Below, one piece after another: positions 9,874 to 56,814 of a stretch of DNA of 64,000 nt. Position numbers and translations under genes: made by a program. The notes beneath the pieces were generated by a model. It was not told the origin of the DNA and did not search any database. It saw only the letters and a program-made list of their open reading frames with translations. Position 1 is the stretch's first letter; every line of letters begins with the position of its first letter. Source of the stretch: Dendrophyllia cribrosa (taxonomy: Eukaryota; Cnidaria; Anthozoa; Scleractinia; Dendrophylliidae); assembly GCA_024195265.1 (NCBI GenBank), contig JAJLRJ010000010.1:33202176-33266175 (forward strand), read 5' to 3'.

Positions 9874-11068
9874 ATGAAGGAAAAGGTAAGTTTGTCCCGT
9901 AATTTTCATTTTCGCTAGTAAACGTTCCTTGTTTGTGAGTCTCACAAACATTGCCGAGCTGAGATTGCGCAGTACGGACTGTAATTCATCTTTAAGGGCT
10001 AGCGTTCGAAACGTCAGCTTTTAAACCAAATTTCCTTTTTCACTCCCCCACCGACGTAGCACCACAGATTCTTCAGAAATTTTAAAATCCCTTTCAGTGA
10101 AAAGACAAGTGAGGTTGCATAAATCATTGATTTTTTGGGCCAATTTCGGGTTCCGGTATCGCCAAATAACTGTTCCACAGTGGAGAAAAATAATCAGTTG
10201 GGCGGGTAGATATATCAGTAAATTTTCAAACGTAACACTGGGAGAGCGCTATCCCTTTCACTCCCAGAGTCAACAATGAAGAGCATGTTATGTAGTTCTA
10301 ACTTTTGAGTCTGTCAACGAAATCCTATGGCGTGACCATTCAAATGAAACCTCTTTAGCAATACTTTTGCGTGGTACCATTTGTTTTTCAATATATTACA
10401 AAATGAAATTTGGGATTTTTCTTCAATTTTGGTGCTTGGCACTCATAGGAGTCTAAGGGTTAATGGGTATCATAAAGAATATAAAGATTAAGTTGACTTT
10501 ATGGTTGATCAGATATGACAGAACTAAAATGAGCTCCCGCTAAAAAGGATACAGATTACGCAAAAGCATTTTAGATCATTTCAGATAAAAGCTAAATACT
10601 TTTTTTAAAAAAGCTTTTTAATATGCTTAAGATTCGAAGGTGTTAGTGTGTTTGTTTGAATTACCTTTTTTTATGTCTTTTCTTTTTTTGAAACTCAAGG
10701 GGTGCAAAGTGGACTTCTCATCCGGGTCCCATAATAGAAACGAAACAAAGACAATTCAAGCAGATGATATCTTTTTGAAAGACTCCAAACAATCTGAAAC
10801 AGCACAGATGGCTATCTTTCAACAAGAAATGTCGGATAAACAAATTGTATCCTTTTCGGATATCAACTTTCCTCCAGCATTCACAATTGTATGGATATCG
10901 CACAAGTGCGATAAAGTTCGCACTTCACGATGTTCTGAAAATTACGACTTCGTGAGAACAACACACCTGGGCAAACTCGAAGTTTTAGTATACACAAGCT
11001 CACTGAAACGATTTCAAATCGTTTGTTGTATATCCTACAGCCTTGCTTTGGACCAAAGTCAAATCTAA
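9874..11068 (+). CDS. hypothetical two-exon gene (tentative)
   Basis: Proposed exon 1 is 9874-9885 (ATG AAG GAA AAG) followed by GTAAGT. Proposed exon 2 is 10700-11068, preceded by a T-rich tract and AAG acceptor. Joined in phase 0 they give 126 residues and a stop, including KDSKQSETAQMAIFQQ and INFPPAFTIVWISHKCDK. There is no signal peptide, membrane segment or domain I recognise. A 142-codon ORF starting at 10640 covers the same frame. The intron would contain PLE debris and a MITE. It could be a small lineage-specific gene, a 5' part of the downstream discoidin gene, or chance. Confidence 0.28.
9988..10080 (+). repeat. Penelope-type terminal repeat remnant
   Basis: Contains gctagcgttcgaaacgtcag followed by a poly-pyrimidine stretch and caccgacgtagcaccacag. 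The reverse of the same motif pair occurs at 13360-13490. The CGAAAC core resembles half of a hammerhead-like motif found in PLE termini. It is degenerate. Confidence 0.45.
10250..10463 (+). mobile_element. single-copy MITE of the 88-bp satellite family
   Basis: Begins near tatccctttcactcccagag and ends near aggagtctaagggttaa, imperfect inverted ends of a TTAA-type element. The centre (gtctgtcaacgaaatcctat and what follows) is the monomer that is amplified at 15.7-16.6 and 53.8-55.4 kb. Confidence 0.75.
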
Positions 11069-15308: not shown

Positions 15309-16837
15309 TAGGCCCCTGCGTCAAACTCCCTCCCCTCCCTCCAACGCAATCCCCATGGGTAAGGCAGGTGACAATAATCCGGTCAAAATATATGCGCAAG
15401 CCTTATGTACTGGTCAGCGGAATTACCGAGAAAAGAGGTAGGTACTTCATATATGACATACTATTATGTACCGTAATATATTCTGTACTCTCTTACTTGG
15501 CTTATATACTATTTTGTACCGATATATATGCTGCCCTCTCACTAAGAGTACAGAATATAGTACGGTACATAATAGTATATCATATATGAAGTACCTACCA
15601 GAAATGTTTACAGCCGTTGGATGGAAGGAAGGAGTGAAAATTTGCTTCGCGTATTCACGAGTTAAAAATGTTGGTTAAACATCTCCTAACACTGATGGGG
15701 TGTTAACCTTTTCACTCCCAGAGTCAATTATGGAAACATGTAGTGTAGTTCTAACTTTTGAGTCTGTGGACGAAATCCTATGGTGTGACCATTCAAATGA
15801 AACCTCTTCAGAAGTACTTTCGCATGGTACCATTTGTTCTAACTTTTGAGTCTGTGGACGAAATCATATGGTGTGACCATTCAAATGAAACCTCTTCAGA
15901 AGTACTTTCGCATGGTACCATTTGTTCTAACTTTTGAGTCTGTGGACGAAATCCTATGGTGTGACCATTCAAATGAAACCTCTTCAGAAGTACTTTCGCA
16001 TGGTACCATTTGTTCTAACTTTTGAGTCTGTGGACGAAATCCTATGGTGTGACCATTCAAATGAAACCTCTTCAGAAGTACTTTCGCATGGTACCATTTG
16101 TTCTAACTTTTGAGTCTGTGGACGAAATCCTATGGTGTGACCATTCAAATGAAACCTCTTCAGCAGTACTTTTGCATGGTACCATCTGTTCTAACTTTTG
16201 AGTCTGTGGACGAAATCGTATGGCGTGACCATTCAAATGGAACCTCTTTGGCAGTACTTTTGCATAGTACCATTTGTTCTAACTTTTGAGTCTGTGGACG
16301 AAATCCTATGGTGTGACCATTCAAATGGAACCTCTTTGGCAGTACTTTTGCATGGTACCATTTGTTCTAACTTTTGAGTCTGTGGACGAAATCCTATGGT
16401 GTGACCATTCAAACGAAACCTCTTCAGAAGTACTTTCGCATGGTACCATTTGTTCTAACTTTTGAGTCTGTGGACGAAATCCTATGGTGTGACCATTCAA
16501 ATGAAACCTCTTCAGAAGTACTTTCGCATGGTACCATTTGTTCTAACTTTTGAGTCTGTGGATGAAATCCTATGGTGTGACCATTCAAATGAAACCTCTT
16601 CAGCAGTACTTTTGCATGGTACCATTTGTTTTTCAATATTTTACAAAAAGTTCTAATTTAACACTGCTTTACAGGTGTATTGCTTTTATGTTTTAGGAAT
16701 TCAATGCTAACATCGATAGCAATAGTGTGGTAACGAACCACCTCCAGCCCCCCATCAGAGCAATGTACCTCAGGATCGTGCCAAGCGCCTGGGTAGGAAA
16801 GATGGCCTTGAGAATGGAAATGTACGGTTGTAGCTGA
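12450..16837 (+). CDS. secreted PAN/apple + EGF + F5/8 type C (discoidin) protein, 3 coding exons
   Basis: Exons 12450-12867, 14817-15130 and 16697-16837 join in phase (1, then 0) to 290 residues plus stop. A hydrophobic N-terminus (VLMTHLLMCFVEITAS) is a likely signal peptide. About residues 23-98 form a PAN/apple-like module (FETCAARCDADPFCYSFNY). About 104-138 form an EGF domain with six cysteines (CEASPCKNNGTCKVL and CSCRNEYSGETC). The rest is an F5/8C domain opening ICSPSPLGLSNHELPD and closing ALRMEMYGCS, with the usual framing cysteines. Architectures like this occur in secreted or matrix adhesion proteins related to lactadherin/EDIL3, which bind lipids or glycans; a role in adhesion or mucus is inferred. 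The base run just before the ATG looks like an acceptor (ttgttacgcag), so a 5' UTR exon may lie upstream. Intron 1 holds three mobile elements; intron 2 holds a CA microsatellite and an 88-bp array. Confidence 0.88.
12892..13233. mobile_element. 340-bp MITE (GGCCCGTTTACACA termini) in intron 1
   Basis: The left end AAGGCCCGTTTACACAGGCG is mirrored on the right by catgtgtaaatgggccttta. The interior repeats the motif GCGATTTnnTG/CGCGACAAA on both strands, giving long imperfect fold-back. It begins only 25 bases past the exon 1 donor. Confidence 0.85.
13355..13500 (+). repeat. Penelope-type terminal repeat remnant
   Basis: Contains agctgacgtttcgagcgctc, then ttctgacgaagggcttgcgc and accgacgcagcactactgca. 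The CTGACGA core is intact but the expected CGAAAC partner downstream reads CGATAT, so any hammerhead-like fold is broken. Confidence 0.45.
14051..14460. mobile_element. 410-bp MITE with ~85-base TIRs and TTAA target
   Basis: Bounded by TTAA (14047-14050 and 14461-14464). The termini AGTGCCTATCACCCCTA are inverted at the right end. Near-identical arms run to about 14133 and from about 14375, with core gaatagttgaatggtaaaat. Terminus and TTAA match the 1.9-kb element at 57460-59349. Confidence 0.9.
14490..14800 (+). mobile_element. MITE-like repeat (ttcaattgag family), copy 1
   Basis: Left end agagcggttttcaattgagt, right end acattcaattgaagaccgc. The interior carries acgcgttttcccgagcttgg and gattggttcattggattgtc, shared with copies at 18600-18962, 22791-23055 and 55478-55645. 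Its right edge abuts the acceptor of the discoidin gene's exon 2. Confidence 0.75.
15211..15304. repeat. C-run plus (CA)n microsatellite
   Basis: About 25 C followed by about 33 CA repeats in intron 2 of the discoidin gene. The long HTHTHT/CVCVCV frames over it are artefacts. Confidence 0.97.
15702..16650 (+). repeat. 88-bp tandem array (about 10 copies) inside a MITE
   Basis: The left flank ttaaccttttcactcccaga is the terminus of the MITE seen complete at 45843-46078. From 15749 the 88-base unit (starting ttctaacttttgagtctgtg) repeats at exact 88-base spacing (15749, 15837, 15925 and on) to about 16640. The element's distal part then resumes (ttttcaatattttacaaaa) but its right terminus is missing. 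The array sits in the last intron of the discoidin gene. Confidence 0.95.
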
Positions 16838-20500: not shown

Positions 20501-23500
20501 AAAGAGAAAGGCAAACATGGCGGCCATTAGTGAGCATTTATGTTGTTTTATTATTTGTAGGTTTAAGTCGGTAGAGAACAGCTTTGTATTGATAGCGTTT
20601 TTTCAAAAACTGAAGTGGTAATCCTGTATAAATTATTAAGTAACTTTACTTCGTTATTTGGAAATAAGAACACTGTCTGACCTGATCTCCTTTTCAGCTT
20701 TCCTTATCTTAGCGTCTAGTTCATCTCCTTCGCGCTGCAGCTCCTCCTTCTCTTGGGCTGCCTTGATGACGTAATAAGCTTGGGATCTCTCCTCCTCCCC
20801 CTCGGGGGGCGCCATGGAGATCATCAGTATTTCATACCTGGTGTAAGCAAACATGAAGTATCTTGTGAGCAATAAAAAGAATGACAACCGCGTTACCCTT
20901 GCGGGAGAAACTGTAGAATAAGTTCCAGTTCCTGTTTTCTCTCTAGGACAATAAAGCGACAAAAGAAAGAAACGAGCGGATGCGACGCAAATTTTCCTTT
21001 CGTATACGGTCGCTGCCATTTTAGCGGCACTTAGAAAATTTTTCACCAATTATCCAATTTTTTTCCATCAGAGAAAGGAAAATGCAATTAATAACCTAGA
21101 ATCGAACCCGGAACCTGTTGCATGCAAGCATCCCTCCTTCATCACTATAGAGAGACCACTAAAATATGTTTTTCATAATGATACATCTATAACGTGTGAC
21201 CCTATCTCAAAATCCAGCGTGAATCTAGCTTAGGTCTAATAATCGCTTTACCTAGGCCTAATTATATCTAAAAATGATAGCCTATTTTCGTCCCAATCCA
21301 GGCATAAACTAGAGAGAAATGACATCGACCTTTACAAAAGGTTTGTTTACTAATGAATGTTAATGATAGCATCGACCGTTGAAAATGACATCGACCGTTT
21401 GCGAAAGGGAAATCAGCGGACGCGACAATCAACGCGGGGGCCCGATGCACTGGAAGTATGATTTCGCCCGGTGGGTGTCTTCTACTTCTCGACAATCCCT
21501 CAGAGAAAGGAGGAGTTACTTCGACAAGACAAGAAGGACGAGATTCAAGGAATGGAGAGTGGCCATGGTCGTTGTGTTTAGCCTGTTCCTGATGTTCAGA
21601 TAGTGGGTAGCCTGTTCCTGGTGTTCAGATAGTGGGTAGCCTGTTCCTGGTGTTCAGATAGTGGGTAGCCTGTTCCTGATGTTCAGATAGTAGGAAGCGA
21701 AGGATAAGCGGCACGCAATTAAAAATATTGCGAGTGCTGACAGAGGGGATTTCCTTCGTGTCGTCGATCCCCTCCATCTGAACGCCTGGAACAGGCTACC
21801 TTGTGTTGTGGTCTTTGATAAAACTGCGGGGTACGCCTGCGATGAACAAGTATCAATCATTCGAGGGAAGAATGAATCCTCGGTTTATTGAACTCTCGAT
21901 ACAAAGAATTCCTTTAAATGCTGACATTTTGATACCGATTTTATATAATTTTTAAATGATATCATAAATTTTATTGTAAAGTTTTTACGCAATTTAGCCT
22001 TTCAGCTGTAACAGTATGACTGAAAAAACTACCTATCTATCTTTCTATCTCTATCTATCACTATCTGTCTAGAAAACAATACCCAGATCACCCGGTAATA
22101 TATACCTTTTCCTTAATTTGTCGATCTTGGATATTCGTTCATGAAGCTCAGAGCTGCAAGGTAAGGCAAAATTAAAAACATATTTTTTAATCTAGGGAGT
22201 ACAAGATAAAAATCAAACATGGTACTCAAAATGACAACAAAACTGCCGATGTGGCGTCGTTTGCAACTTATTTTACGGACTAGGGTTCGCACCATTGACA
22301 ATTCGCAACCAACGAGTTCGCTCCCACCTGATACGAGTTCACTCTTAGATTACGAGGTCGCTTAGAACCAGAAATATCCATGTATACCATAAACCTTTCG
22401 TATAACTCGCATTTAGAACGAGGAATATCCATGTACTTCATTAACCTTTCGTGTAACTCACGTTTAGAACGAGTAATATACATGATTACACCAGCTACCG
22501 AACTCCATAATCTTGGAGCGAACTCGTATTAGGTGGGAGCGAACTCGTATTAGGTGGGAGCGAATTCGTTGGTTGCGAACTCTCAATGGTGCAAAACCTC
22601 CGGTTACCAGCTATAATCAATAATGAGGGGCACAACAGAAGCTATCTCCTCAAGCATTTCGTGATGATCCGAGATGTGTCCAGGATTTAACATACATACA
22701 TACAAATGAATGAACGGCTTAGTTTCTTAAGAAACAGTGGCGCTGCATTGGTAGGAAAGTGAAACTTTGGTTTTATCAATTGGGTTGATAGAGCTTTTTT
22801 CAATTGAGTGTCGAAAGTAATTACACAATTGCTTTGGTTTTGCATTGCTACGCTTTGTGATTGGCTAAAAAGTCTCGCGCCACTTTCTCGACCAATCAGA
22901 AGTAAAACCAAAACCAATCGTGACTTGCTCCCACGCGTTTTCCCGCGCTTGGCGCCGGCGACATGTATTTGCTTCGAGCTCTGATTGGTTCATTGGATTG
23001 TTTACGACTGCTGTGACTGGTCAGAGTAATTAGTTTGGTTTTAAAAAAAGCTCTATTGTACCTGTTGTCTTACAAAATGCTGTTTTACTCCTGGCTCCAC
23101 ACTGTACATACCTGACAGTCTGCCTTTCTTCCTCAGATGACTTGATCTGTGCTCTTAACATGTCTTTGTGTATGTCAATTTCATGACGACGCTGCTGCAT
23201 TGCCTATAACAGAAAAAAATGAAAAGGGCTGTTAGTTTAACTATAAAGCCACGAGAAACGAACGACAACACAAGAAAGTAAAGTCAACTCCCGTCTGCGG
23301 ACACTTCGCTATAGAAAGAAAGAAAAGGAAGGAAAAGTTGAAATACTTACCGTTTCCAACTGCAGTTTTCTCTTCTCGAGGTTGAGCACATTATCTGCTT
23401 TATTGCTGAGAGTTTCTCGGAGTCGTTTGATCTCCAGCTTCAAAATGTTCTCATCCACCATCAGATCCTATAACAAATAATAAAAACAAATTGATTATGT

Positions 23501-26500: not shown

Positions 26501-29500
26501 ATTTTCCGCAGAACATGGTTTTCAGTTAAAAGCTTTGCCAAATAGCGAGCGCGATGCGCGGGTCACTCGCTTGTTCGTTACGCTTTTTTACTCGCGCTCT
26601 TTACAGAACTTTAATATGGCGGACGACTGAAGAGGCTCGAAGACCGAAATTTTTTTCAAACTACCGCGTTTCAACAGTGTTTAGATCGGTTTAAAGTTAT
26701 TTTAAGTGCGTCGTTTGTCTATGAAAGACGTGATGTCTTATTCTTCTCGCTCTTTACAGAGCGCTTCTTCAACAAATTCGTGTGCGGCAAGATTTTCATT
26801 TTGAATCGTTAGATTCGCAATGGTCAGAGTACGATGGCAAAAACATTTTCCGCAGAACATGGTTTTCAGTTAAAAGCGTTGCCAAATACCGAGGGTGAAT
26901 CACGGGTCACTCGCTTGTACGTTGCGCTTTGTTTCTCGTGCTCTTTGCAAAGCGTTTTGCAGTCCAGATCTAGACGCGCTCTTTTACTCGATCGGTTAAC
27001 GTAGTTTATACCTAGAGTATATTAACTGAGGTTTTAAAAAATAATATAGGCCTTTCTATTTGCCGGACAATGAGAAATGTGAAATAAATGATGGCTTCTC
27101 TTTGAAATCCTAACTTGAACAAGCGAAAAGCAAGCGCCCGCCTCTCACGACTGAGGGAACATTGTTTGTATTGAGATAATTATTCAAATTTGAATCCGTT
27201 TGCCGGTCTCGTAGGAGTTCGTCGGAAGACATTTTGGAGCGCTATTTTTAGTTTACGGAACACCTTCTATAAAATAGCGCTTTGATACTATTTCCACGCA
27301 TCGTATTAAATCCAAACTTCGCCAATCTTTTGTTTAGACACGAGGCCAACATTTCCCGGGTGAACCTTAGTTAGCAAGTCCTTTCTTGAAGAGAAAGACC
27401 ATCCTGAATATCAATGCGGTGTTTTTTCCATACTGAAATCAGCGAAAAAACCGAATTTTAGAACGCGATTCGATAGAATAAAAAGGGTCTTAAATGATTC
27501 CTTAACACCTCTTCTGAAAAAGCCAGGGTGAACCTAATCGCCAAAGTACTTAGTTTTTTGTTATGGAGTAAAACATACACCTTGTTTCGCCATTTCCCCC
27601 CATTTTCTTTGATATTTGGCTCTTTTGTCAGACGGAAGCTTTTCAAATTTAGCGCTCTGGGCCGTAAGAAGGTCCCGGATATGTCGCTGTATTCTCGGCG
27701 ATGACACTTAGTGATGCCAGTCATGGAGTAGCGTGCACCCCACAGAACACTTTGTGATGCCAGTCATGGAGTAGCGTGCCACCCCTCAGGACACTTTGTG
27801 ATGGCAGTCATGGAGTAGCGTGCACCCCCTGAGGACACTTTGTGATGCCAGTCATGGAGTAGCGTGCCACCCCCCAGGACACTTTGTGATGCCAGTCATG
27901 GAGTAGCGTGCAACCCCCTAGGACACTTTGTGATGACAGTCATGGAGTAGCGTGCACCCGCCTAGGACACTTTGTGATGCCAGTCACGGAGTAGCGTGCC
28001 AACCCCAAGACACTTTGTGATGCCAGTCATGGAGTAGAGTGCAAACCCCTAGGACACTTTGTGATGCCAGTCATAGAGTAGCGTGCACCCGCCCAGGACA
28101 GTTTGTGATGCCAGTCATGGAGTAGCGTGCCACTCCTTAGGACACTTTGTGATGCCAGTCATGGAGTAGCGTGCCACCTTCCCAGGACACTTTGTGATGC
28201 CAGTCATAGAGTAGCGTGCACCCCCCCAGGACACTTTGTGATGCCAGTCATGGAATAGCTTACCATCCCCCAGGACACTTTGTGATGCCAGTCATGGAGT
28301 AGCGTGCACCCCCCAGGACACTTTGTGATGCCAATCATGGAGTAGCGAGGCATCGCCCTGAATGCCATTGTCTTTTGCGAAGTTCGCGACATGTACTTAC
28401 AGTGCCCAGTTTCTTGATGCGCAGCCTAATTATTTGCATATACAGAACCAGTCGGTTGTGTTTGCTCAACAGAATAAGCTTTGGGAATACTCTAGGCTCT
28501 AGTCTCTTGGCAGATTCAACTGCTGTCAATTGCACGGTTTGATGCGTGATGTAAATCCCAAGGTGCTGTAATTAAAGGCGGGCCGCGCTCGTTTCAAAGC
28601 ATTTTGTCAACAAATTCGTGTGGGTGATGGAAGCTTTTCACATTTAGCGCTCTGGACCGTTAGAAGGTCCCGAATATGTCGCTGTATTCTCGGCGATGAG
28701 GAAACATTGTAACGGCTCCTAAAATTTGAAAAATACATGGTTATAAATGATTGGCTAATACATGACATGTAGACAGCGCACTTGTAAACACAAGATAATA
28801 ACAATAATAATAACAACAAATATTTAAACAGGGTAGCCACTTCAGTTATACAACTGTTATCAGTGTGGGCCCTGTAAAATAAAACTAAAATAAGAAATTT
28901 ACAGAAAACTTTTATATACAATTGCGGATAAAAATTTATAAATCTTAGTCTATAAAAACACTTGCTACGGATCAGAATTTAAGAATTAAAAAGTGCCGCA
29001 CCCTTATAAAATAACGCACGTTTTGAAATCTCTAACTTAATTTTTTCTATAAAAAGATCATTACTGTGCCTAGTGTAGTGCGAATGGATGTCACAGCGTT
29101 TCGTATTAAAATAATTAGTGAATATATCTGGGACACACCCCTGAATGCATTTGATAACTAATTGTTTTACGTGTTCCTCTCGTAGCTTTGATAATGTCTT
29201 CCATCCCAGACGACTAATAATGGCATCACTTGATAGGTCCCACGAGTTTTTGAGGATTATTCTGCCAGCTCGTCTTTGTAATCGTTCAATCTTTAGTTCG
29301 TTTTCCTTGCTGCAGCCATGCCAAGTTACGTCACAGTATTCTAGAATGGGTAGAACGTTCGTTCCTTCGGTTAATGCCTTCTGGTGATGAAGTGTTCCCT
29401 CTATGAATTAAAAAGGCCTCGCGTGCTTTTCGACGGGAAGCATTGATGGTAGGCTGCAGTTCAGGCGGGATAAGTCTCATGTCCGCGGAAGAGTGACCTG

Positions 29501-35500: not shown

Positions 35501-38500
35501 TTTAGCACTCTAATCTCAAAATTCCAAGATTCTATTCTCAAATGTCTGCAGCACCAAATTTATTTTGTTTGGACTACTCAGGGAAGGTATAAACAGCGTA
35601 AAAAGCCTCATAAATCTTCTTAATATTTAAATTTACCTCATCTTGGAACTGAATGCGAATCTGTTCAGAGTCCTGGTACTCAAGTCGCAGTTTAGCTGCC
35701 TGTCTCTCAGCTACACCAACCTTCTTTTCCTTTTCTTGATTGTTGGCAAGCTCACTCTCTAAGAATTTCTAAATGAAAGTTTTAGGAAACAAAATAATGA
35801 AGAAAAATTGTGACTTGTCTGCAGAAAAAAAACCAAAATGCAACAACAAAAGACAACATAGTGACTGAAGTAAATATTAAGTGAGAACAGAAGCTGTTAT
35901 GAGCTTCTGGTGAGAATTACCTGTTTTTCTTGGACTTGTTCCTCTCTGTCCCTTACTTCAAGCTTTACCTCAGCAAGTTTCTATAGAGAATGTAAGCATA
36001 ATTTACAGTTTAGAAGGTTGCCCATAAAAAATAATGCTGACCTACTTCTTTTGTAGGTTAATCATGTTTCTTACTGAGATCTCATGTGAAAGTCTGGTAC
36101 AGCGCTGGGAGTTTTCATAATTTTTATAATATTCATCATTTTCACAACATTGGCAATTTTCATGAACATCTCTCTGAAATTGCAGGAATTGTAGACTGTC
36201 AGGTAGCTCTATAATATAATTTTTTGTCATGAATTTTCATGATTTATGACACATTAGTTCAATCCTGGACATGAATGTATCTTGAACATACCACAGCCAG
36301 TTGGTCCATCTCTCTGTCTCTCTTCTGCATCTGTTCAATAGTATTCTCCCACTGCCTTAACAATTCTTGTCTCTCACTGTGCGCCTTGCGGAACTCCTCA
36401 GCTGTCTTGTCTAATTCAATCTAAAGCAGTAAACACACAAAGCCTGTGAACAACATAACTACAAAGACTACTCTTTGAACAAAGTGAATCAAATGCCCTT
36501 TATGGTAAAGAGGGGAGGCAGCAGGGAAGGTTCCGTCCCTCTGTCCTTGCCTGATTTTGGTCAGAATGGTGTGAGATGTTACTCTGGGGGGAGGGTGGGG
36601 GAGACCATGTTCGGTTGATTTTGCAACCCTATACTAGACTAGACACCAAAAATTTCTACCCTATCCCAGACTTGCTATTTTTAGAACTGTATCACCATAA
36701 CAGTCAAATATATGCTAATTAAAACAATATGTTACAATGTTGCATTTTCTTTCTCTTCCGAGTTTCAATTCCTATTCTAGACTTAATTCTTCATACCACT
36801 GATCAGTTGCCTGGTAAATGATACCCTATTCTGGACCAAAACTCTCTGATTTCTATACCCTATCCCAGACTAAACAGCTTGAAAACCATACCCTTTTACA
36901 GCGGCACATACCCATATGGCTTATATATGAGAGTACCCCCTCCCCCTCTGTAGCCAGGGGCAATAATAATTTATTTATTAATTTTCAAGTGTAAGAAACT
37001 AAGTGTAAACACAGCATTATTCTGTATTCTCAAAACTCACACCCAGCCCTTATACTTCACCATAAAGCACTACATACTTCATATAACTTTCATACCTGAG
37101 CTGTCATGGTGAGAGTTAGCTCATGCTCCAGTTCTCTCCTCTTCTTTGCAGCATCATCTGTCATTTTTTCCATTCTGAGTGTTAGTTCCTAGTCAGCAAA
37201 AAAAAAATGGTGTCACAAACTAAACTTGGTAAAAAGGGTAAAAAGTTTCACACATGTCACAGATGGGCCACAGGGCCAGAGCTTAATGCATTTTCTGTAG
37301 CATGAAGCAACTAAAAATATAAGTTGCTCCCCCACCCCACCCCCCCCCCCCTAAATGGGTTAACCCCAAGCACTATGTTTCCAGGACCCATTTATACAAC
37401 TGGCCCCCGGTTGTTCAAAAGGTGGATAGTGCTATCCATTGGATAAATCACCTTCAGTCAGTGGATAAGCATTGACGAAATACTTTGTGATATCTGGCGG
37501 ATAGTGATTTATCCGGTGGATAGCACTATCCACCTTTTAAACAACCGGGGGCCTGGTCGAAAGATATAATGTAGATTAAGTTTCTTGCCTAAGGAAACAA
37601 GGCGATGGCCGAGATCAGGGCCCGGTTGTTCAAAAGGTGGATAGTGCTATCCACCGGATAAATCGCTATCCAGTGGATAACACAATTGGTTTTGCTAATG
37701 CTTATACACTGGATAGTGATTTATCCGGTGGATAGCGCCATCCACCTTTTGAACAACCGGGGCCTGGCCTTGAACACTGACCTTCAGATCTGAATTCCAA
37801 CATGCTAACCACACTTCCCCACCATGCCTCCACTCATTATATAGTAACTGGATCTGGATCAGCTGTATTATTCAATACATACAATTTACAGGAATACTAA
37901 CCTTCACTTTGCCTTCGTCTGAACGAGTGTACTTTTGGAGTGTTAGCGCATCCTCATCTTTCCTGGCCGATTCCTCTAGCCATGCCTCCAAGGCCTTCTG
38001 ATCCCAGTTCATCTGGCTCTTCAAGTCTTCCAGACGTTGTGTGCTCCTGAAAATGTTGTTCTAGTATAACAAGAAGCAAAGATCAATATTCCAATGGTCT
38101 TAGTCATTTTAGCTTTATTTATACGTCTAGAACAAAATGTAAAATTATTGCGATTAATCATGTTTAAAATGAAGATGATTTACCCACTACATGTGAAAAA
38201 GGTTCCACATGCAGTCCAGATGATTTAATAGCCCATATTCACGATGTCAGCCATCTTTGCAGGTGCTTAGGTGTTGTCAGGAAAATATTAGGGTCACGTG
38301 GTTACTCAGGGGGCAAACGGCTGAAATCACGGTAAATTCGCAGTTGGTTGTGATGTAAACAATGCTTTGTTAAATCTGGTTTTCATGAATTTTTCATAAC
38401 AAATTCCAAAATACACACAGAATTCACTCTCCTGACAGCACAGCTTTGGGTTTCCACAATATCTGTCAAATTGGATTATCTAAAATAATGGGAGAAAAAC

Positions 38501-42036: not shown

Positions 42037-42798
42037 ATGAAGACTAGAAGTACAAAGCGTACAACCAAATCAAGTCAAGGAGGAGGCGAACTAGTCGATC
42101 AGAACGCTGAATCATTGGTCTTGGATGAAAACTCAGATAGAGTTCAGATAGAGTTTGTTCAAGATGAGATGGTCGAAGCAGTCGAAGAAAAACACATAAA
42201 GGATAATACAGAACGTGTGATTGCCGTGATAGATATGAATCCGGCTGAAGGGAGCAATGTAGAGGATGATAACGACGATGATATTCCAGAAGATGTTTCT
42301 TGGAAGGCCAGCAAAGAAACTGCCATTCGAGGACTGACCAGAGTGAAAGAGAGCCTTCTTGATAGTAAACGAAAGGAAAAACAGATGAGAATGGAGAGAA
42401 ATGAAAGGCTGCGAGAGCAGAAGGAAAGAAAAAGAGCGAGAGAGTTCTCCAGACTACCAATAGAGGTACTCCAACATGTTGCTAAGCAACAGGATTTCCA
42501 GAAAAAGGAGGAGGTGGTAACCCAGACAGTTGCTACTGGAGATCATGTGACATTTGATAGTTCAAGTGAAGATGAAGAAGAGGAAACTGAAGAAAAAGAA
42601 GAAGAACCAGCAGTTAAAGTTCTTGTGTTGTCAAGAGAAACAAAGAAACCAAAGAAAATTCAGCAATCAGCAAGTCTATTTTTACAAGAGCATTTGTTTG
42701 GAGATAGAATTCAGCGCATTTCATCCACAAAACACTCAGATAACAGAAGAAAGACAAAAGGTTTTGCTCCTGCCATGAACTTTTCCAAAAAGTCCTGA
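42037..42798 (+). CDS. NOL7: Nucleolar protein 7 homolog (UTP16-like), single exon
   Basis: 253 residues. NOL7 is a nucleolar protein linked to the small-subunit processome and early 18S rRNA maturation (family knowledge). The N-terminus is basic (TRSTKRTTKSS), then acidic (EDDNDDDIPEDVSW). A long charged helix follows (LLDSKRKEKQMRMERNERLR, EQKERKRAREFSRLPIEVL) corresponding to the human segment before ILEKL. A second acidic stretch at about 175-190 precedes the conserved C-terminal block SASLFLQEHLFGDRIQR ending APAMNFSKKS, which matches the family's FxxxxLYG...F pattern. No introns. Poly-A candidate ATTAAA near 42902. The ATG is the first in frame. Shares its promoter region with CCDC39. 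Identification rests on domain order and pattern, not an alignment. Confidence 0.78.
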   Translation: MKTRSTKRTTKSSQGGGELVDQNAESLVLDENSDRVQIEFVQDEMVEAVEEKHIKDNTERVIAVIDMNPAEGSNVEDDNDDDIPEDVSWKASKETAIRGLTRVKESLLDSKRKEKQMRMERNERLREQKERKRAREFSRLPIEVLQHVAKQQDFQKKEEVVTQTVATGDHVTFDSSSEDEEEETEEKEEEPAVKVLVLSRETKKPKKIQQSASLFLQEHLFGDRIQRISSTKHSDNRRKTKGFAPAMNFSKKS

Positions 42799-43070
42799 AA
42801 GTTTTTAAAAAGCTAAAAAAAATCCAATTAATAGATAATTCATGTACTGATGGTCTGAAACACTGTTCCTTTTTTGGAAATGTTTCCTTTAGCTTTTCTG
42901 TTATTAAAGCCTTACAACACCATTTTTTAAATTTTGGTATAAGACAAGGAAGATATGAAACAAGAATATATCTTTTTATTGTCTTACTTTAATTTGCTAT
43001 ATTTATTGTCAAGAAAGAAACGATGTGAAATCTGAGAAGTCTCATATTCACTCACACTCTGTGCCATTCT

Positions 43071-45367
43071 GGCCCCCGGTTGTTCAAAAAGTGGATATCG
43101 CTATCCACTGGGTAACTCACTATCCAGTTGTTAAGTATTTACAAAACCTATTGCCACTGCCTAGCAATTTATCCGGTGGATAGCACAATCCACCAGATAA
43201 CTCACTATACAGTTGTTAAGTATTTACAAAACCTATTGCCACTGCCTAGTGATTTATCCGGTGGATAGCCGTATCCACCGAATAACTCACTATACAGTTG
43301 TTAAGTATTTACAAAACCTATTGCCACTGCCTAGCAATTTATCTGGTGGATAGCCCTATCCACCAGATAACTCACTATACAGTTGTTAAGTATTTACAAA
43401 ACCTATTGCCACTGCCTAGTGATTTATCTGGTGGATAGCCCTATCCACCGGATAACTCACTATCCAATTGTTAAGTATTTACAAAACCTATTGCCACTGC
43501 CTAGCAATTTATCCGGTGGATAGCCCTATCCACCGAATAACTCACTATACAGTTGTTAAGTATTTACAAAACCTATTGCCACTGCCTAGCAATTTATCCA
43601 GTGGATAGCCCTATCCACCGGATAACTCACTATACAGTTGTTAAGTATTTACAAAACCTATTGCCACTGCCTAGCAATTTATCCGGTGGATAGCCCTATC
43701 CACCGGATAACTCACTATACAGTTGTTAAGTATTTACAAAACCTATTGCCACTGCCTAGTGATTTATCCGGTGGATAGCCCTATCCACCAGATAACTCAC
43801 TATACAGTTGTTAAGTATTTAAAAAACCTATTGCTACTGCCTAGCAATTTATCCGGTGGATAGCCCTATCCACCAGATAACTCACTATACAGTTGTTAAG
43901 TATTTACAAAACCTATTGCCACTGCCTAGCAATTTATCCGGTGGATAACCCTATCCACCGGATAACTCACTATACAGTTGTTAAGTATTTACAAAACCTA
44001 TTGCCACTGCCTAGCAATTTATCCGGTGGATAGCCCTATCCACCAGATAACTCACTATACAGTTGTTAAGTATTTACAAAACCTATTGCCACTGCCTAGC
44101 AATTTATCCGGTGGATAACCCTATCCACCGGATAACTCACTATACAGTTGTTAAGTATTTACAAAACCTATTGCCACTGCCTAGCAATTTATCCGGTGGA
44201 TAGCCCTATCCACCAGATAACTCACTATACAGTTGTTAAGTATTTACAAAACCTATTGCCACTGCCTAGCAATTTATCCGGTGGATAGCCCTATCCACCG
44301 AATAACTCACTATACAGTTGTTAAGTATTTACAAAACCTATTGCCACTGCCTAGCAATTTATCCGGTGGATAACCCTATCCACCGGATAACTCACTATAC
44401 AGTTGTTAAGTATTTACAAAACCTATTGCCACTGCCTAGCAATTTATCCGGTGGATAGCCCTATCCACCAGATAACTCACTATACAGTTGTTAAGTATTT
44501 ACAAAACCTATTGCCACTGCCTAGCAATTTATCCGGTGGATAACCCTATCCACCGGATAACTCACTATACAGTTGTTAAGTATTTACAAAACCTATTGCC
44601 ACTGCCTAGCAATTTATCCGGTGGATAGCCCTATCCACCAGATAACTCACTATACAGTTGTTAAGTATTTACAAAACCTATTGCCACTGCCTAGCAATTT
44701 ATCCGGTGGATAGCCCTATCCACCGAATAACTCACTATCCAGTTGTTAATTATTTACAAAACCTATTGCCACTGCCTAGTGATTTATCCGGTGGATAGCC
44801 CTATCCACCGAATAACTCACTATACAGTTGTTAAGTATTTACAAAACCTATTGACACTGCCTAGTGATTTATCCGGTGGATAGCCCTATCCACCAGATAA
44901 CTCACTATACAGTTGTTAAGTATTTACAAAACCTATTGCCACTGCCTAGTGATTTATCCGGTGGATAGCCCTATCCACCGAATAACTCACTATACAGTTG
45001 TTAAGTATTTACAAAACCTATTGCCACTGCCTAGCAATTTATCCGGTGGATAGCCCTATCCACCGGATAACTCACTATACAGTTGTTAAGTATTTACAAA
45101 ACCTATTGCCACTGCCTAGCAATTTATCCGGTGGATAGCCCTATCCTAGCAATTTATCCGGTGGATAGCCCTATCCACCGAATAACTCACTATACAGTTG
45201 TTAAGTATTTACAAAACCTATTGCCACTGCCTAGCAATTTATCCGGTGGATAACCCTATTCACCAGATAACTCACTATACAGTTGTTAAGTATTTACAAA
45301 ACCTATTGCCACTGCCTAGCAATTTATCCGGTGGATAGCCCTATCCACCTGTTGAACAACTGGTGCC
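43071..45367. repeat. 85-bp hairpin satellite array (about 26 copies) inside a MITE
   Basis: Begins with the MITE terminus ggcccccggttgttcaaaaa and ends with cacctgttgaacaactggtgcc-type terminus, as in the copies at 37403 and 37619. Between lie about 26 units of 85 bases (acaaaacctattgccactgc recurs at exact 85-base steps, e.g. 43141, 43226). Each holds a palindrome, ttatccggtggatag-CCC-ctatccaccggataa with variants. Variants recur in a five-unit order over 43.95-44.37 and 44.37-44.80 kb (425-bp higher-order repeat). One unit near 45121-45180 has a 30-base internal duplication. Intergenic, between NOL7 and the AP-1 sigma gene. Confidence 0.96.
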
Positions 45368-45842
45368 TGAACGTGAACTGAAGCATACTGAACATTGCTG
45401 TGAACACAGTAGAATGTAAACAAACATACTGTTTCATAGTGCTGTTACGGTGTACGTTTTTGCATGGGATCCCGTCTGAGAATCTACCACAAAGATGAAG
45501 TGGTGATGCATTTCTTTGCAGATCTTAGCTGTGGTTGTGATTGGTAGAGGTAGCGTTACATTCCTGCATCCAAAGTACTATACCGTATGTAAGTTTTACA
45601 GTGGTATCTTCAGACATCAACCTGCTGTAAAAACATAGCATACAACAAAATGTCTGTTTTGTCAGACTTTCAAGACAGCAAATATTAGTTAAAATAGATG
45701 ACAATCCTGGTAATATAACAATGTTGCCTTCCAAAGTTGTTGCCTCTTTAGATGTGTAAGTTATGGATATTGATATCACTTGTTCGGGACAGAACTCCAA
45801 GAACACTGTTAGTATCAATAAATAAGTTTGAATTCAGACTTG
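45368..45842. other. intergenic, nothing recognised
   Basis: A 97-codon minus-strand ORF here (45525-45818) has no family resemblance, and no repeats are obvious. Confidence 0.4.
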
Positions 45843-53793: not shown

Positions 53794-55385
53794 CCCCTTA
53801 ACTCTCAAGAGTGCCAAAAATCAAAATTCAAGAAAAATGACAAATTTGATTTTGTAAAATATTGAAAAACAAATGGTACCATGCTAAAGTGCTGCTGAAG
53901 AGGTTTCATTTGAATGGTCACACCATAGGATTTTATTGACAGACTCAAAAGTTAGAACAAATGGTACCATGCTAAAGTACTGCTGAAGAGGTTCATTTGA
54001 ATGGTCACACCATAGGATTTCATCAACAGACTCAAAAGTTAGAACAAATGGTACCATGCTAAAGTACTGCTGGAGAGGTTTCATTTGAATGGTCACACCA
54101 TAGGATTTCATCCACAGACTCAAAAGTTAGAACAAATGGTACCATGCTAAAGTACTGCTGAAGAGGTTCATTTGAATGGTCACACCATAGGATTTCGTCC
54201 ACAGACTCAAAAGTTAGAACAAATGGTACCATGCTAAAGTACTGCTGAAGAGGTTCATTTGAATGGTCACACCATAGGATTTCATCAACAGACTCAACAG
54301 TTAGAACAAATGGTACCATGCTAAAGTACTGCTGAAGAGGTTCATTTGAATGGTCACACCATAGGATTTTATTGACAGACTCAAAAGTTAGAACAAATGG
54401 TACCATGCTAAAGTACTGCTGAAGAGGTTCATTTGAATGGTCACACCATAGGATTTCATCAACAGACTCAAAAGTTAGAACAAATGGTACCATGCTAAAG
54501 TACTGCTGGAGAGGTTTCATTTGAATGGTCACACCATAGGATTTCATCCACAGACTCAAAAGTTAGAACAAATGGTACCATGCTAAAGTACTGCTGAACA
54601 GGTTCATTTGAATGGTCACACCATAGGATTTCGTCCACAGACTCAAAAGTTAGAACAAATGGTACCATGCTAAAGTACTGCTGAAGAGGTTCATTTGAAT
54701 GGTCACACCATAGGATTTCATCAACAGACTCAAAAGTTAGAACAAATGGTACCATGCTAAAGTACTGCTGAAGAGGTTCATTTGAATGGTCACACCATAG
54801 GATTTTATTGACAGACTCAAAAGTTAGAACAAATGGTACCATGCTAAAGTACTGCTGAAGAGGTTCATTTGAATGGTCACACCATAGGATTTCATCAACA
54901 GACTCAAAAGTTAGAACAAATGGTACCATGCTAAAGTACTGCTGGAGAGGTTTCATTTGAATGGTCACACCATAGGATTTCATCCACAGACTCAAAAGTT
55001 AGAACAAATGGTACCATGCTAAAGTACTGCTGAAGAGGTTCATTTGAATGGTCACACCATAGGATTTCATCAACAGACTCAAAAGTTAGAACAAATGGTA
55101 CCATGCTAAAGTACTGCTGAAGAGGTTCATTTGAATGGTCACACCATAGGATTTCATCAACAGACTCAAAAGTTAGAACAAATGGTACCATGCTAAAGTA
55201 CTGCTGAAGAGGTTCATTTGAATGGTCACACCATAGGATTTTATTGACAGACTCAAAAGTTAGAACAAATGGTACCATGCTAAAGTACTGCTGAAGAGGT
55301 TCATTTGAATGGTCACATCATAGGATTTTATTGAAAGACTACAGTACATGTCTCCATAATTGACTCTGGTAGTGAAAGGGTTTAA
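53794..55385 (-). repeat. 87/88-bp tandem array (about 17 copies) inside a MITE, with 436-bp higher-order repeat
   Basis: Same MITE family as 45843-46078 in reverse orientation, with both ends present (ccccttaactctcaagagtg; ggtagtgaaagggtttaa). About 17 core units lie between. A variant unit (gaggtttcatttgaatgg with catccacagactc) recurs at about 54072, 54508 and 54944, and another (ttttattgacagactc) at about 53932, 54366, 54802 and 55238. Spacing is about 436 bases, i.e. five monomers. The three 115-166-codon minus frames repeating YFSMVPFVLTFESV are artefacts of the array. Confidence 0.96.
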
Positions 55386-56450: not shown

Positions 56451-56814
56451 TACATAAAAAAAATTGTCCCGGTAACAGCGCTTTAAGAGTCCATGGTTAT
56501 ATTATTAGCATAATAAGCTATGCTGGGTAAAACAGCAAAACAGAAAAATCCTTTCCAATTTTACAGAGATCTTGTTCATGTAAAGACTGAGTTAATCACA
56601 CGTACTTGTTTATGTCAGGTAGACTTAGCACGCGGAAACGTTGTAAAATTATTCCGAAATGCGTAGCATTAAAACAGTATGAAATAAATGTTTCGCCCTT
56701 TTTATTGAATTGTGTGTGCAAAATTTTACCTGAAGGCGCCATCACATGACAAACTAAAATTGGAAAACTGGTGTTGGGTATATCCGGAAAGTTGGCAAAC
56801 TCGTGTTTTCATAC

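What the first reader, a model, noticed from the sequence alone, without database searches (positions are those of the whole stretch)
43071..45367. Satellite array born inside a hairpin MITE, with five-unit higher-order repeat
The outer ends are those of a ~150-bp MITE present twice nearby (37403-37555, 37619-37765), but the interior is about 26 copies of an 85-bp unit, each with a perfect or near-perfect 33-base hairpin. Variant units recur in the same order of five (aacc/ccgg, ag, aacc/ccgg, ag, gaa types) over two successive 425-bp blocks, as in centromeric-type satellites. That points to later unequal exchange of multi-unit blocks.
Basis: partly seen in the sequence, partly recalled or inferred. 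Interest (0 to 1): 0.8.

Follow-up and report, generated by a model that had tools for sequence, protein, structure and literature searches.

The report
Tandem array grown inside hairpin MITE
In a coral genome, a short hairpin-shaped jumping gene has multiplied its own middle part into a 26-copy repeat array; relatives with 2 to 15 copies elsewhere in the genome show how a satellite repeat can be born from a transposon.

Summary
In detail: 43071-45368 is a MITE whose interior is repeated as 26 units (85 bp; one interval 115 bp). The nearest named protein relatives are stony corals.

The 627-Mb assembly holds 2027 terminal palindromes of this family and 251 palindromes of the between-units kind. 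Sampled relatives carry 1 to 15 units. Of 38 other multi-unit loci, 24 have both MITE ends, 12 one, 2 none.

Junctions suggest the mechanism. Each MITE end has a 20-bp palindrome, so left and right copies are also direct repeats. All 25 full internal palindromes are hybrids of right-end and left-end flanks, as exchange between the ends would leave. Orientation is uniform in 33 of 34 loci, favouring duplication over fusion of neighbours. One insertion in two segmental copies has 9 and 6 units. Against a purely local origin, in 16 of 31 loci units are on average no closer to each other than to the nearest outside unit.

The "higher-order repeat" is one exact 425-bp block present twice; ten other arrays tested show no clear such period. 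The kind is known; the ladder and hybrid junctions are the useful part.

The parts
43071..43089 (+). left terminal inverted repeat of the array-bearing MITE (outer dinucleotide CT at 43069-43070)
   Evidence: exact match to the MITE terminus pattern at 43073-43089; alignment with MITE1/MITE2; terminus C[AT]GG seen at other loci
43090..43109 (.). left terminal palindrome: outer (TIR) flank on the left, inner flank on the right
   Evidence: flank scores 8/8 outer on the left, 7/9 inner on the right
43114..45349 (+). 26 tandem units (85 bp; one interval 115 bp) separated by 25 full hybrid palindromes
43879..44303 (+). first 425-bp five-unit block (units 10-14)
   Evidence: identical to the next block; unit variants
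44304..44728 (+). second 425-bp five-unit block (units 15-19)
   Evidence: identical to the first block; 437-bp exact repeat at shift 425
45115..45176 (+). 30-bp duplication inside a hairpin that makes one interval 115 bp long
   Evidence: TRF period 30, 2.1 copies, 100%; spacing 115; extra incomplete palindrome
45330..45349 (.). right terminal palindrome: inner flank on the left, outer (TIR) flank on the right
   Evidence: flank scores 8/9 inner on the left, 7/8 outer on the right
45350..45368 (+). right terminal inverted repeat (followed by TG at 45369-45370)
37402..37554 (.). single-unit MITE 1 of the same family (palindromes 94 bp apart)
37617..37767 (.). single-unit MITE 2 of the same family (palindromes 91 bp apart)

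Best explanation
It is a non-autonomous hairpin MITE whose interior was tandemly multiplied where the element sits. Each end of the MITE carries a 20-bp palindrome (GGTGGATAG..CTATCCACC) just inside the terminal repeat. A palindrome reads the same in both orientations, so these inverted ends are at the same time direct repeats about 91 bp apart (85 bp in this copy). Out-of-register pairing between the right palindrome of one copy and the left palindrome of its sister (unequal exchange, slippage or break repair) gives a two-unit element. The new internal palindrome is a hybrid: inner flank of the right end, core, inner flank of the left end. Because those inner flanks are complementary, the hairpin grows from 20 to 32 nt. 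Once two or more units exist, ordinary unequal exchange changes copy number by one unit or by blocks, including the exact 425-bp five-unit duplication. SHOWN: unit structure, hybrid junctions, copy-number ladder with MITE ends, uniform orientation, closeness of the window array's units to each other, a three-unit difference between segmental copies, the 425-bp block duplication. INFERRED: the enzymatic route, and that the palindromes rather than other sequence start the first duplication. No host function is proposed; the array looks like a by-product of the element's architecture.
For: All 25 full internal palindromes have MITE-right-inner sequence on the left (7-9 of 9) and MITE-left-inner on the right (7-8 of 9), with outer flank only at the two array ends. 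Genome: hybrid pattern 251 sites, reversed-pattern control 0; terminal pattern 2027 sites, control 0. Ladder of 1, 2, 3, 4, 5, 6, 8, 9, 13, 15 and 26 parsed units over 52 loci; 38 other multi-unit loci: both MITE ends 24, one 12, none 2. Orientation uniform in 33 of 34 loci with two or more parsed units (one window unit undecided, a few loci are near-copies of others). 153 of 187 units have their strictly nearest relative in their own locus (30 label shuffles: mean 2.6, maximum 7); window-array units differ from each other by at most 8 and from every other sampled unit by at least 13. L012 and L054, 98.97% identical over a 1365-bp alignment that includes nearly 800 bp of left flank, have 9 and 6 units. 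Exact 425-bp duplication. Sample not chosen by array: 0 of 40 loci picked by a MITE end show a clear hybrid palindrome, so the single-unit form is the base state.
Against: In 16 of 31 multi-unit loci the mean difference between units is not smaller than the mean distance to the nearest outside unit, and units identical to ones at other loci occur in L015, L016, L023, L024 and L028: part of the family may have spread as ready-made arrays or by fusion. L022, L059 and L060 are the clearest (units differ by 7 or more on average, outside relatives at about 1-3). L050 has one unit in the opposite orientation. The single-unit parent of the 85-bp variant was not found: the dedicated search did not complete. 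Edge units are not generally more diverged than inner ones (7 of 19 arrays, p = 0.33), although in the window array MITE-like variants do lie towards the edges (p = 0.007, variants chosen after looking). Arrays are rare among elements, so the palindromes make duplication possible but not common. No target-site duplication was found.
Confidence: 0.68

Rival explanations
1. Fusion of neighbouring MITEs (the Hikosaka-Kawahara route): two separate insertions lie side by side, and a deletion between the right palindrome of one and the left palindrome of the next removes the terminal repeats between them. Repeated fusions build the array.
For: It leaves the same hybrid palindrome. Adjacent or overlapping MITEs are not rare: L074, L079, L092, L093, L095 and L096 in the sample of 40 (L092 and L093 have mirror-image spacings), and the palindromes of MITE1 and MITE2 lie 121 bp apart in the window. 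L022, L059 and L060 have diverged units, and L050 one reversed unit.
Against: Independent insertions should often lie in opposite orientation, but 33 of 34 loci are uniform. In six loci, the window array among them, every within-locus difference is smaller than any difference to other sampled units.
Confidence: 0.13
2. A multi-unit element transposed here from elsewhere; the array was born at another site and only changed length after arrival.
For: The second family in this window looks like this: 22 of 22 examined loci carry the same unit junction and only 50 of 150 units are strictly nearest to their own locus. Within family A, some loci share identical units (L015/L016/L024, L023/L028).
Against: No sampled array comes near the 85-bp unit (minimum 13 differences). 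The search that would list further 85-bp arrays did not complete.
Confidence: 0.13
3. Extrachromosomal circle route: recombination between the two palindromes releases a circle of one unit, which is copied by rolling circle and recombines back into a MITE palindrome.
For: It also gives hybrid palindromes, one orientation and locally uniform units, for example L017 with 15 unit interiors of only 2 types.
Against: Nothing here needs it; the 425-bp block and the 9/6 pair are explained by plain unequal exchange. Not tested.
Confidence: 0.04
4. Assembly artefact: the copy number or the 425-bp duplication was created by the assembler.
For: Exact 437-bp repeat; no reads could be examined.
Against: Many distinct unit variants, intact MITE ends and unique flanks; multi-unit loci recur on different contigs; the assembly has 22 long contigs.
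Confidence: 0.01

Closest known systems
Xstir MITE and its tandem arrays in Xenopus (Hikosaka & Kawahara 2004; seen only as described in passages of PMC12628747 and PMC8268682)
   Same: MITE, tandem array and composite forms coexist; the repeat unit may come from the MITE interior
   Different: The published model is stem-loop fusion of two nearby elements; here uniform orientation favours duplication of one element, at least for the window array
miDNA4 MITE satellite in Xenopus (Scalvenzi & Pollet 2014; seen only as described in a passage of PMC12628747)
   Same: Unit present once or as a variable array inside a MITE; short direct repeats proposed as the trigger
   Different: There the array is flanked by AT-rich direct repeats of 5 bp or more and the MITE is assigned to Tc1/mariner; here the direct repeats are the element's own 20-bp subterminal palindromes, and the superfamily is not assigned
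Tetris foldback element and TIR-220 satellite, Drosophila virilis (PMC4079207, abstract and passages read)
   Same: Hairpin/foldback element supplies tandem units that grow into satellite-like arrays
   Different: Tetris repeats lie inside each long TIR (unit about 220 bp); here the unit spans the whole interior from one end palindrome to the other
Tandem-repeat MITEs of the clam Donax trunculus (Satovic & Plohl 2013; only the reference seen, in PMC12628747; paper not held)
   Same: MITE with tandem repeats (from the title only)
   Different: Not compared in detail

Membership tests
MITE-borne satellite / tandem-repeat-containing MITE | terminal inverted repeats flank the array | tested here: met
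   window array both ends; 24 of 38 other multi-unit loci both ends, 12 one end, 2 none
MITE-borne satellite / tandem-repeat-containing MITE | repeat unit is homologous to the interior of single-unit MITEs of the same family | tested here: met
   alignment of unit and MITE1/MITE2; single-unit elements, mostly 91 bp between palindromes, elsewhere
MITE-borne satellite / tandem-repeat-containing MITE | unit number varies between insertions | tested here: met
   1 to 26 units; 9 versus 6 in segmental copies
MITE-borne satellite / tandem-repeat-containing MITE | short, no transposase gene | tested here: met
   no ORF of 100 aa or more within 43071-45368; MITEs about 150 bp
MITE-borne satellite / tandem-repeat-containing MITE | target-site duplication | tested here: inconclusive
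   C[AT] before and [AT]G after the ends in 30 of 40 loci, but the W letters agree in only 16 of 30; no longer duplication seen by eye
Higher-order-repeat (centromeric-type) satellite | multi-unit block reiterated many times | tested here: not met
   one 425-bp block, two copies; none of 10 other arrays tested shows a clear higher-order period
Higher-order-repeat (centromeric-type) satellite | long arrays at the centromere bound by centromeric histone | not testable with these tools
   array is 2.3 kb and starts 272 bp after an ORF conserved in corals; no chromatin data
A named transposase superfamily (hAT, Harbinger, piggyBac and others) | superfamily-specific termini, target-site duplication and transposase | tested here: inconclusive
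   no duplication found; two longer relatives, L101 and L102, showed no obvious transposase reading frame by eye (no profile search was run on them)

The most novel reading that the evidence does not exclude
The end architecture itself is a satellite generator. Palindromes inside inverted ends double as direct repeats, so every copy of such a MITE is primed for tandem duplication, and each duplication creates a longer hairpin (20 to 32 nt) that is more prone to breakage and slippage. This positive feedback would seed new satellites independently at many sites of one genome and could be general for MITEs with palindromic subterminal repeats.
Probability: 0.3. Interest if true: 0.65.

Novelty: new member of a known kind. 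Interest (0 to 1): 0.43.

Why it matters
How satellite DNA starts from a transposon is usually inferred from end products. Here one genome holds a graded series (1 to 26 units) of one MITE family, junctions that record the exchange point, and a pair of segmental copies caught with different unit numbers. A second, unrelated MITE family in the same 64 kb seems instead to spread arrays that share one junction. That makes the two routes (local birth versus riding on transposition) directly comparable in one genome.

Tried and rejected
Centromeric-type higher-order repeat: rejected (two copies of one block; ten other arrays without a clear period). Selection for a perfect hairpin: not supported; 22 of 25 stems carry at least one mismatch, and of 45 unit variants counted in units 1-23, 25 lie in the 32-nt hairpin, 12 of them CpG transitions. 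Edge units older in general: not supported over 19 arrays, though seen in the window array. A CWG target-site duplication: not supported (16 of 30 agree). Autonomous relative: two relatives with 1.5-2 kb between the ends showed no obvious transposase frame by eye. Other collections: MITE pattern, 0 hits in viral contigs and genome contigs; unit pattern, 0 in viral contigs; family B pattern, 0 in viral contigs; blastn of MITE1 against phages, none. Papers: none seen on this coral family in the listings; subscription journals are mostly not held. Corrections to my own steps: the first hybrid-junction score was out of register by 2 bases and was replaced; unit counts printed for family B are one too high where the first junction equals the left boundary; the family B lag test merged two units of the array at 53868 into one and is not relied on; my notebook says 5.8 kb for the L012-L054 distance, the computed starts are 5639 bp apart. 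Rows dropped: L027 and L043 as complex before the 38-locus count; L054, L058, L034 and L027 before the nearest-relative count; L035, L039, L043 and L055 gave no unit under the 80-100 bp spacing rule.

Full report
WHAT IS THERE. Tandem Repeats Finder finds an 85-bp array at 43091-45146 with a continuation to 45349. Twenty-six unit starts lie 85 bp apart, except for one 115-bp step caused by a 30-bp duplication at 45115-45176. The array starts and ends with the ends of the short hairpin MITE found twice at about 37402-37554 and 37617-37767. Those two fold as near full-length hairpins.

WHERE IT IS. An open frame (42037-42798) ends 272 bp before the array. It has 54 protein relatives at E 0.001 or better, the closest 84% identical; only four rows carry a name, from Oculina, Stylophora and Acropora, so the host is taken to be a stony coral. 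The window is C2:33202176-33266175 of a 627-Mb assembly in 22 contigs.

ANATOMY. Each MITE end has a 20-bp palindrome just inside the terminal repeat, and one unit is the stretch from one palindrome to the next. I scored the flanks of the 27 full palindromes of the array; a 28th, incomplete one belongs to the 30-bp duplication. The first has terminal-repeat flank on its left, the last has it on its right, and all 25 between have right-end inner flank on the left and left-end inner flank on the right. This is the product expected if the right palindrome of one copy recombined with the left palindrome of another. Only 3 of 25 stems are perfect, so there is no sign that pairing is preserved.

GENOME-WIDE. 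With at most one mismatch the assembly holds 2027 terminal palindromes and 251 hybrid ones; the reversed-pattern controls are 0. I fetched 53 loci: 39 from the array search (in which only 40 of 471 candidates were scored) and the 14 not yet fetched from the displayed part of the hybrid list. This set is enriched for arrays. With the window's three elements, 52 loci gave parsed units (four of the 53 gave none): 18 with one unit, 6 with two, 6 with three, 3 with four, 7 with five, 4 with six, 3 with eight, 2 with nine, and one each with 13, 15 and 26. A few of these loci are near-copies of others, and four of the 18 (L029, L030, L031, L046) also have a hybrid palindrome, so their count of one is a minimum. 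Of 38 other multi-unit loci, 24 have both MITE ends, 12 one and 2 none (L027 and L043 left out as complex). In a second set of 40 loci, chosen only by a MITE end with no mismatch and taken in order along C1 (one already fetched site skipped), 0 of 40 have a clear hybrid palindrome; two palindromes in L074 have an unclassified left half. Single-unit elements are therefore the rule and arrays a minority.

LOCAL BIRTH OR FUSION. Unit orientation is uniform in 33 of 34 loci with two or more parsed units (one window unit undecided); L050 has one reversed unit. Of 187 units in multi-unit loci (four loci dropped), 153 have their strictly nearest relative in the same locus, against a mean of 2.6 and a maximum of 7 in 30 label shuffles. 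In six loci, the window array included, every within-locus difference is smaller than any difference to other loci. This favours duplication of one element where it sits, most clearly for the window array. Against it as a general rule: in 16 of 31 loci the mean within-locus difference is not smaller than the mean distance to the nearest outside unit (a mean set against a minimum), and five loci hold units identical to units elsewhere. L022, L059 and L060 are the best candidates for fusion. Adjacent or overlapping MITEs, the raw material for fusion, occur in at least six of the 40 loci of the second set (L074, L079, L092, L093, L095, L096).

LATER CHANGE BY BLOCKS. L012 and L054 are segmental copies of one insertion 5.6 kb apart, 98.97% identical over a 1365-bp gapped alignment that includes the left flank, and 96.6% over a second one of 1044 bp that reaches into the right flank. 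They carry 9 and 6 units; most simply, L012 units 6-8 are absent from L054. The ungapped flank counts printed (389 of 600 and 418 of 500) are lower, presumably because of short indels. The window's 425-bp duplication is the same kind of event. In the window array, MITE-like variants (8 of 24 units, chosen after looking) lie towards the edges (p = 0.007), and units 9-19 differ less among themselves (1.75) than units 1-8 (4.14) or 20-23 (3.67), so the middle was probably renewed last. This edge pattern is not general: edge units exceed inner units in 7 of 19 arrays (p = 0.33). A five-unit order is not general either (10 arrays tested).

A SECOND FAMILY AS A CONTRAST. A different MITE in the window has single copies near 10248, 24897 and 45841 and arrays at 15748-16630 and 53868-55328; the copy at 45841 shows TTAACCCTTT-type inverted ends. 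The array at 53868 has a five-unit period of 436 bp in about 3.3 copies at 99% (unit types). Of the 39 other loci returned (40 of 590 candidates scored) I examined 20. All 22 arrays, counting the window's two, contain the same unit junction; within-locus (5.65) and between-locus (6.11) differences are almost equal, and only 50 of 150 units are strictly nearest to their own locus. This looks like arrays carried by transposition, unlike the window array of family A. The query contained the junction and the loci were its best matches, which may overstate the likeness.

COMPARISON WITH THE LITERATURE. The review PMC12628747 (passages read) describes the Xenopus Xstir and miDNA4 cases and the proposed mechanisms; Tetris (PMC4079207, abstract and passages) is a foldback parallel; PMC9659126 and PMC8268682 were read in passages and PMC11136912 in abstract and outline. 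The originals of Xstir and miDNA4 were not seen. The kind is therefore known. What I did not see in those passages is a junction inside the element's own subterminal palindromes that leaves a hybrid, longer hairpin.

VERDICT. Observation confirmed. MITE origin and block exchange supported. Centromere-like higher-order structure not supported. Mechanism: tandem duplication between end palindromes that act as direct repeats; the structural traces are shown, the enzymatic steps are inferred.

Noticed in passing
15748-16630 (+) and 53868-55328 (-); single copies near 10248, 24897, 45841, partial near 56800: A second, unrelated MITE family with 87/88-bp internal arrays; the array at 53868 has a five-unit (436-bp) period in about 3.3 copies, and all 22 arrays examined contain one and the same junction.
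   Followed up: partly
27703-28347: 44-bp array (14.7 copies) with a 175-bp four-unit period (3.7 copies); no flanking inverted repeats found within 250 bp.
   Followed up: partly
L074, L087, L092, L093, L096: Clusters of MITEs whose neighbouring palindromes lie 57 or 39 bp apart, as if elements insert into or next to each other's ends: a different kind of tandem that keeps terminal sequence between units.
   Followed up: no
L041 flanks: A single MITE flanked on both sides by the same sequence in inverted orientation (at least 26 bp), suggesting a larger foldback around it.
   Followed up: no
L101 (1049-2594) and L102: Longer relatives with about 1.5-2 kb between MITE-type ends and a partly shared interior, without an obvious transposase frame.
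   Followed up: partly
22289-22592: A 52-bp inverted repeat (92%) flanks a 51-bp tandem repeat: possibly a third hairpin element with internal repeats.
   Followed up: no
42037-42798: ORF of 253 aa with mostly unnamed relatives (four named rows, all from corals, one as a transcriptional regulator ATRX homolog) ends 272 bp before the array.
   Followed up: partly
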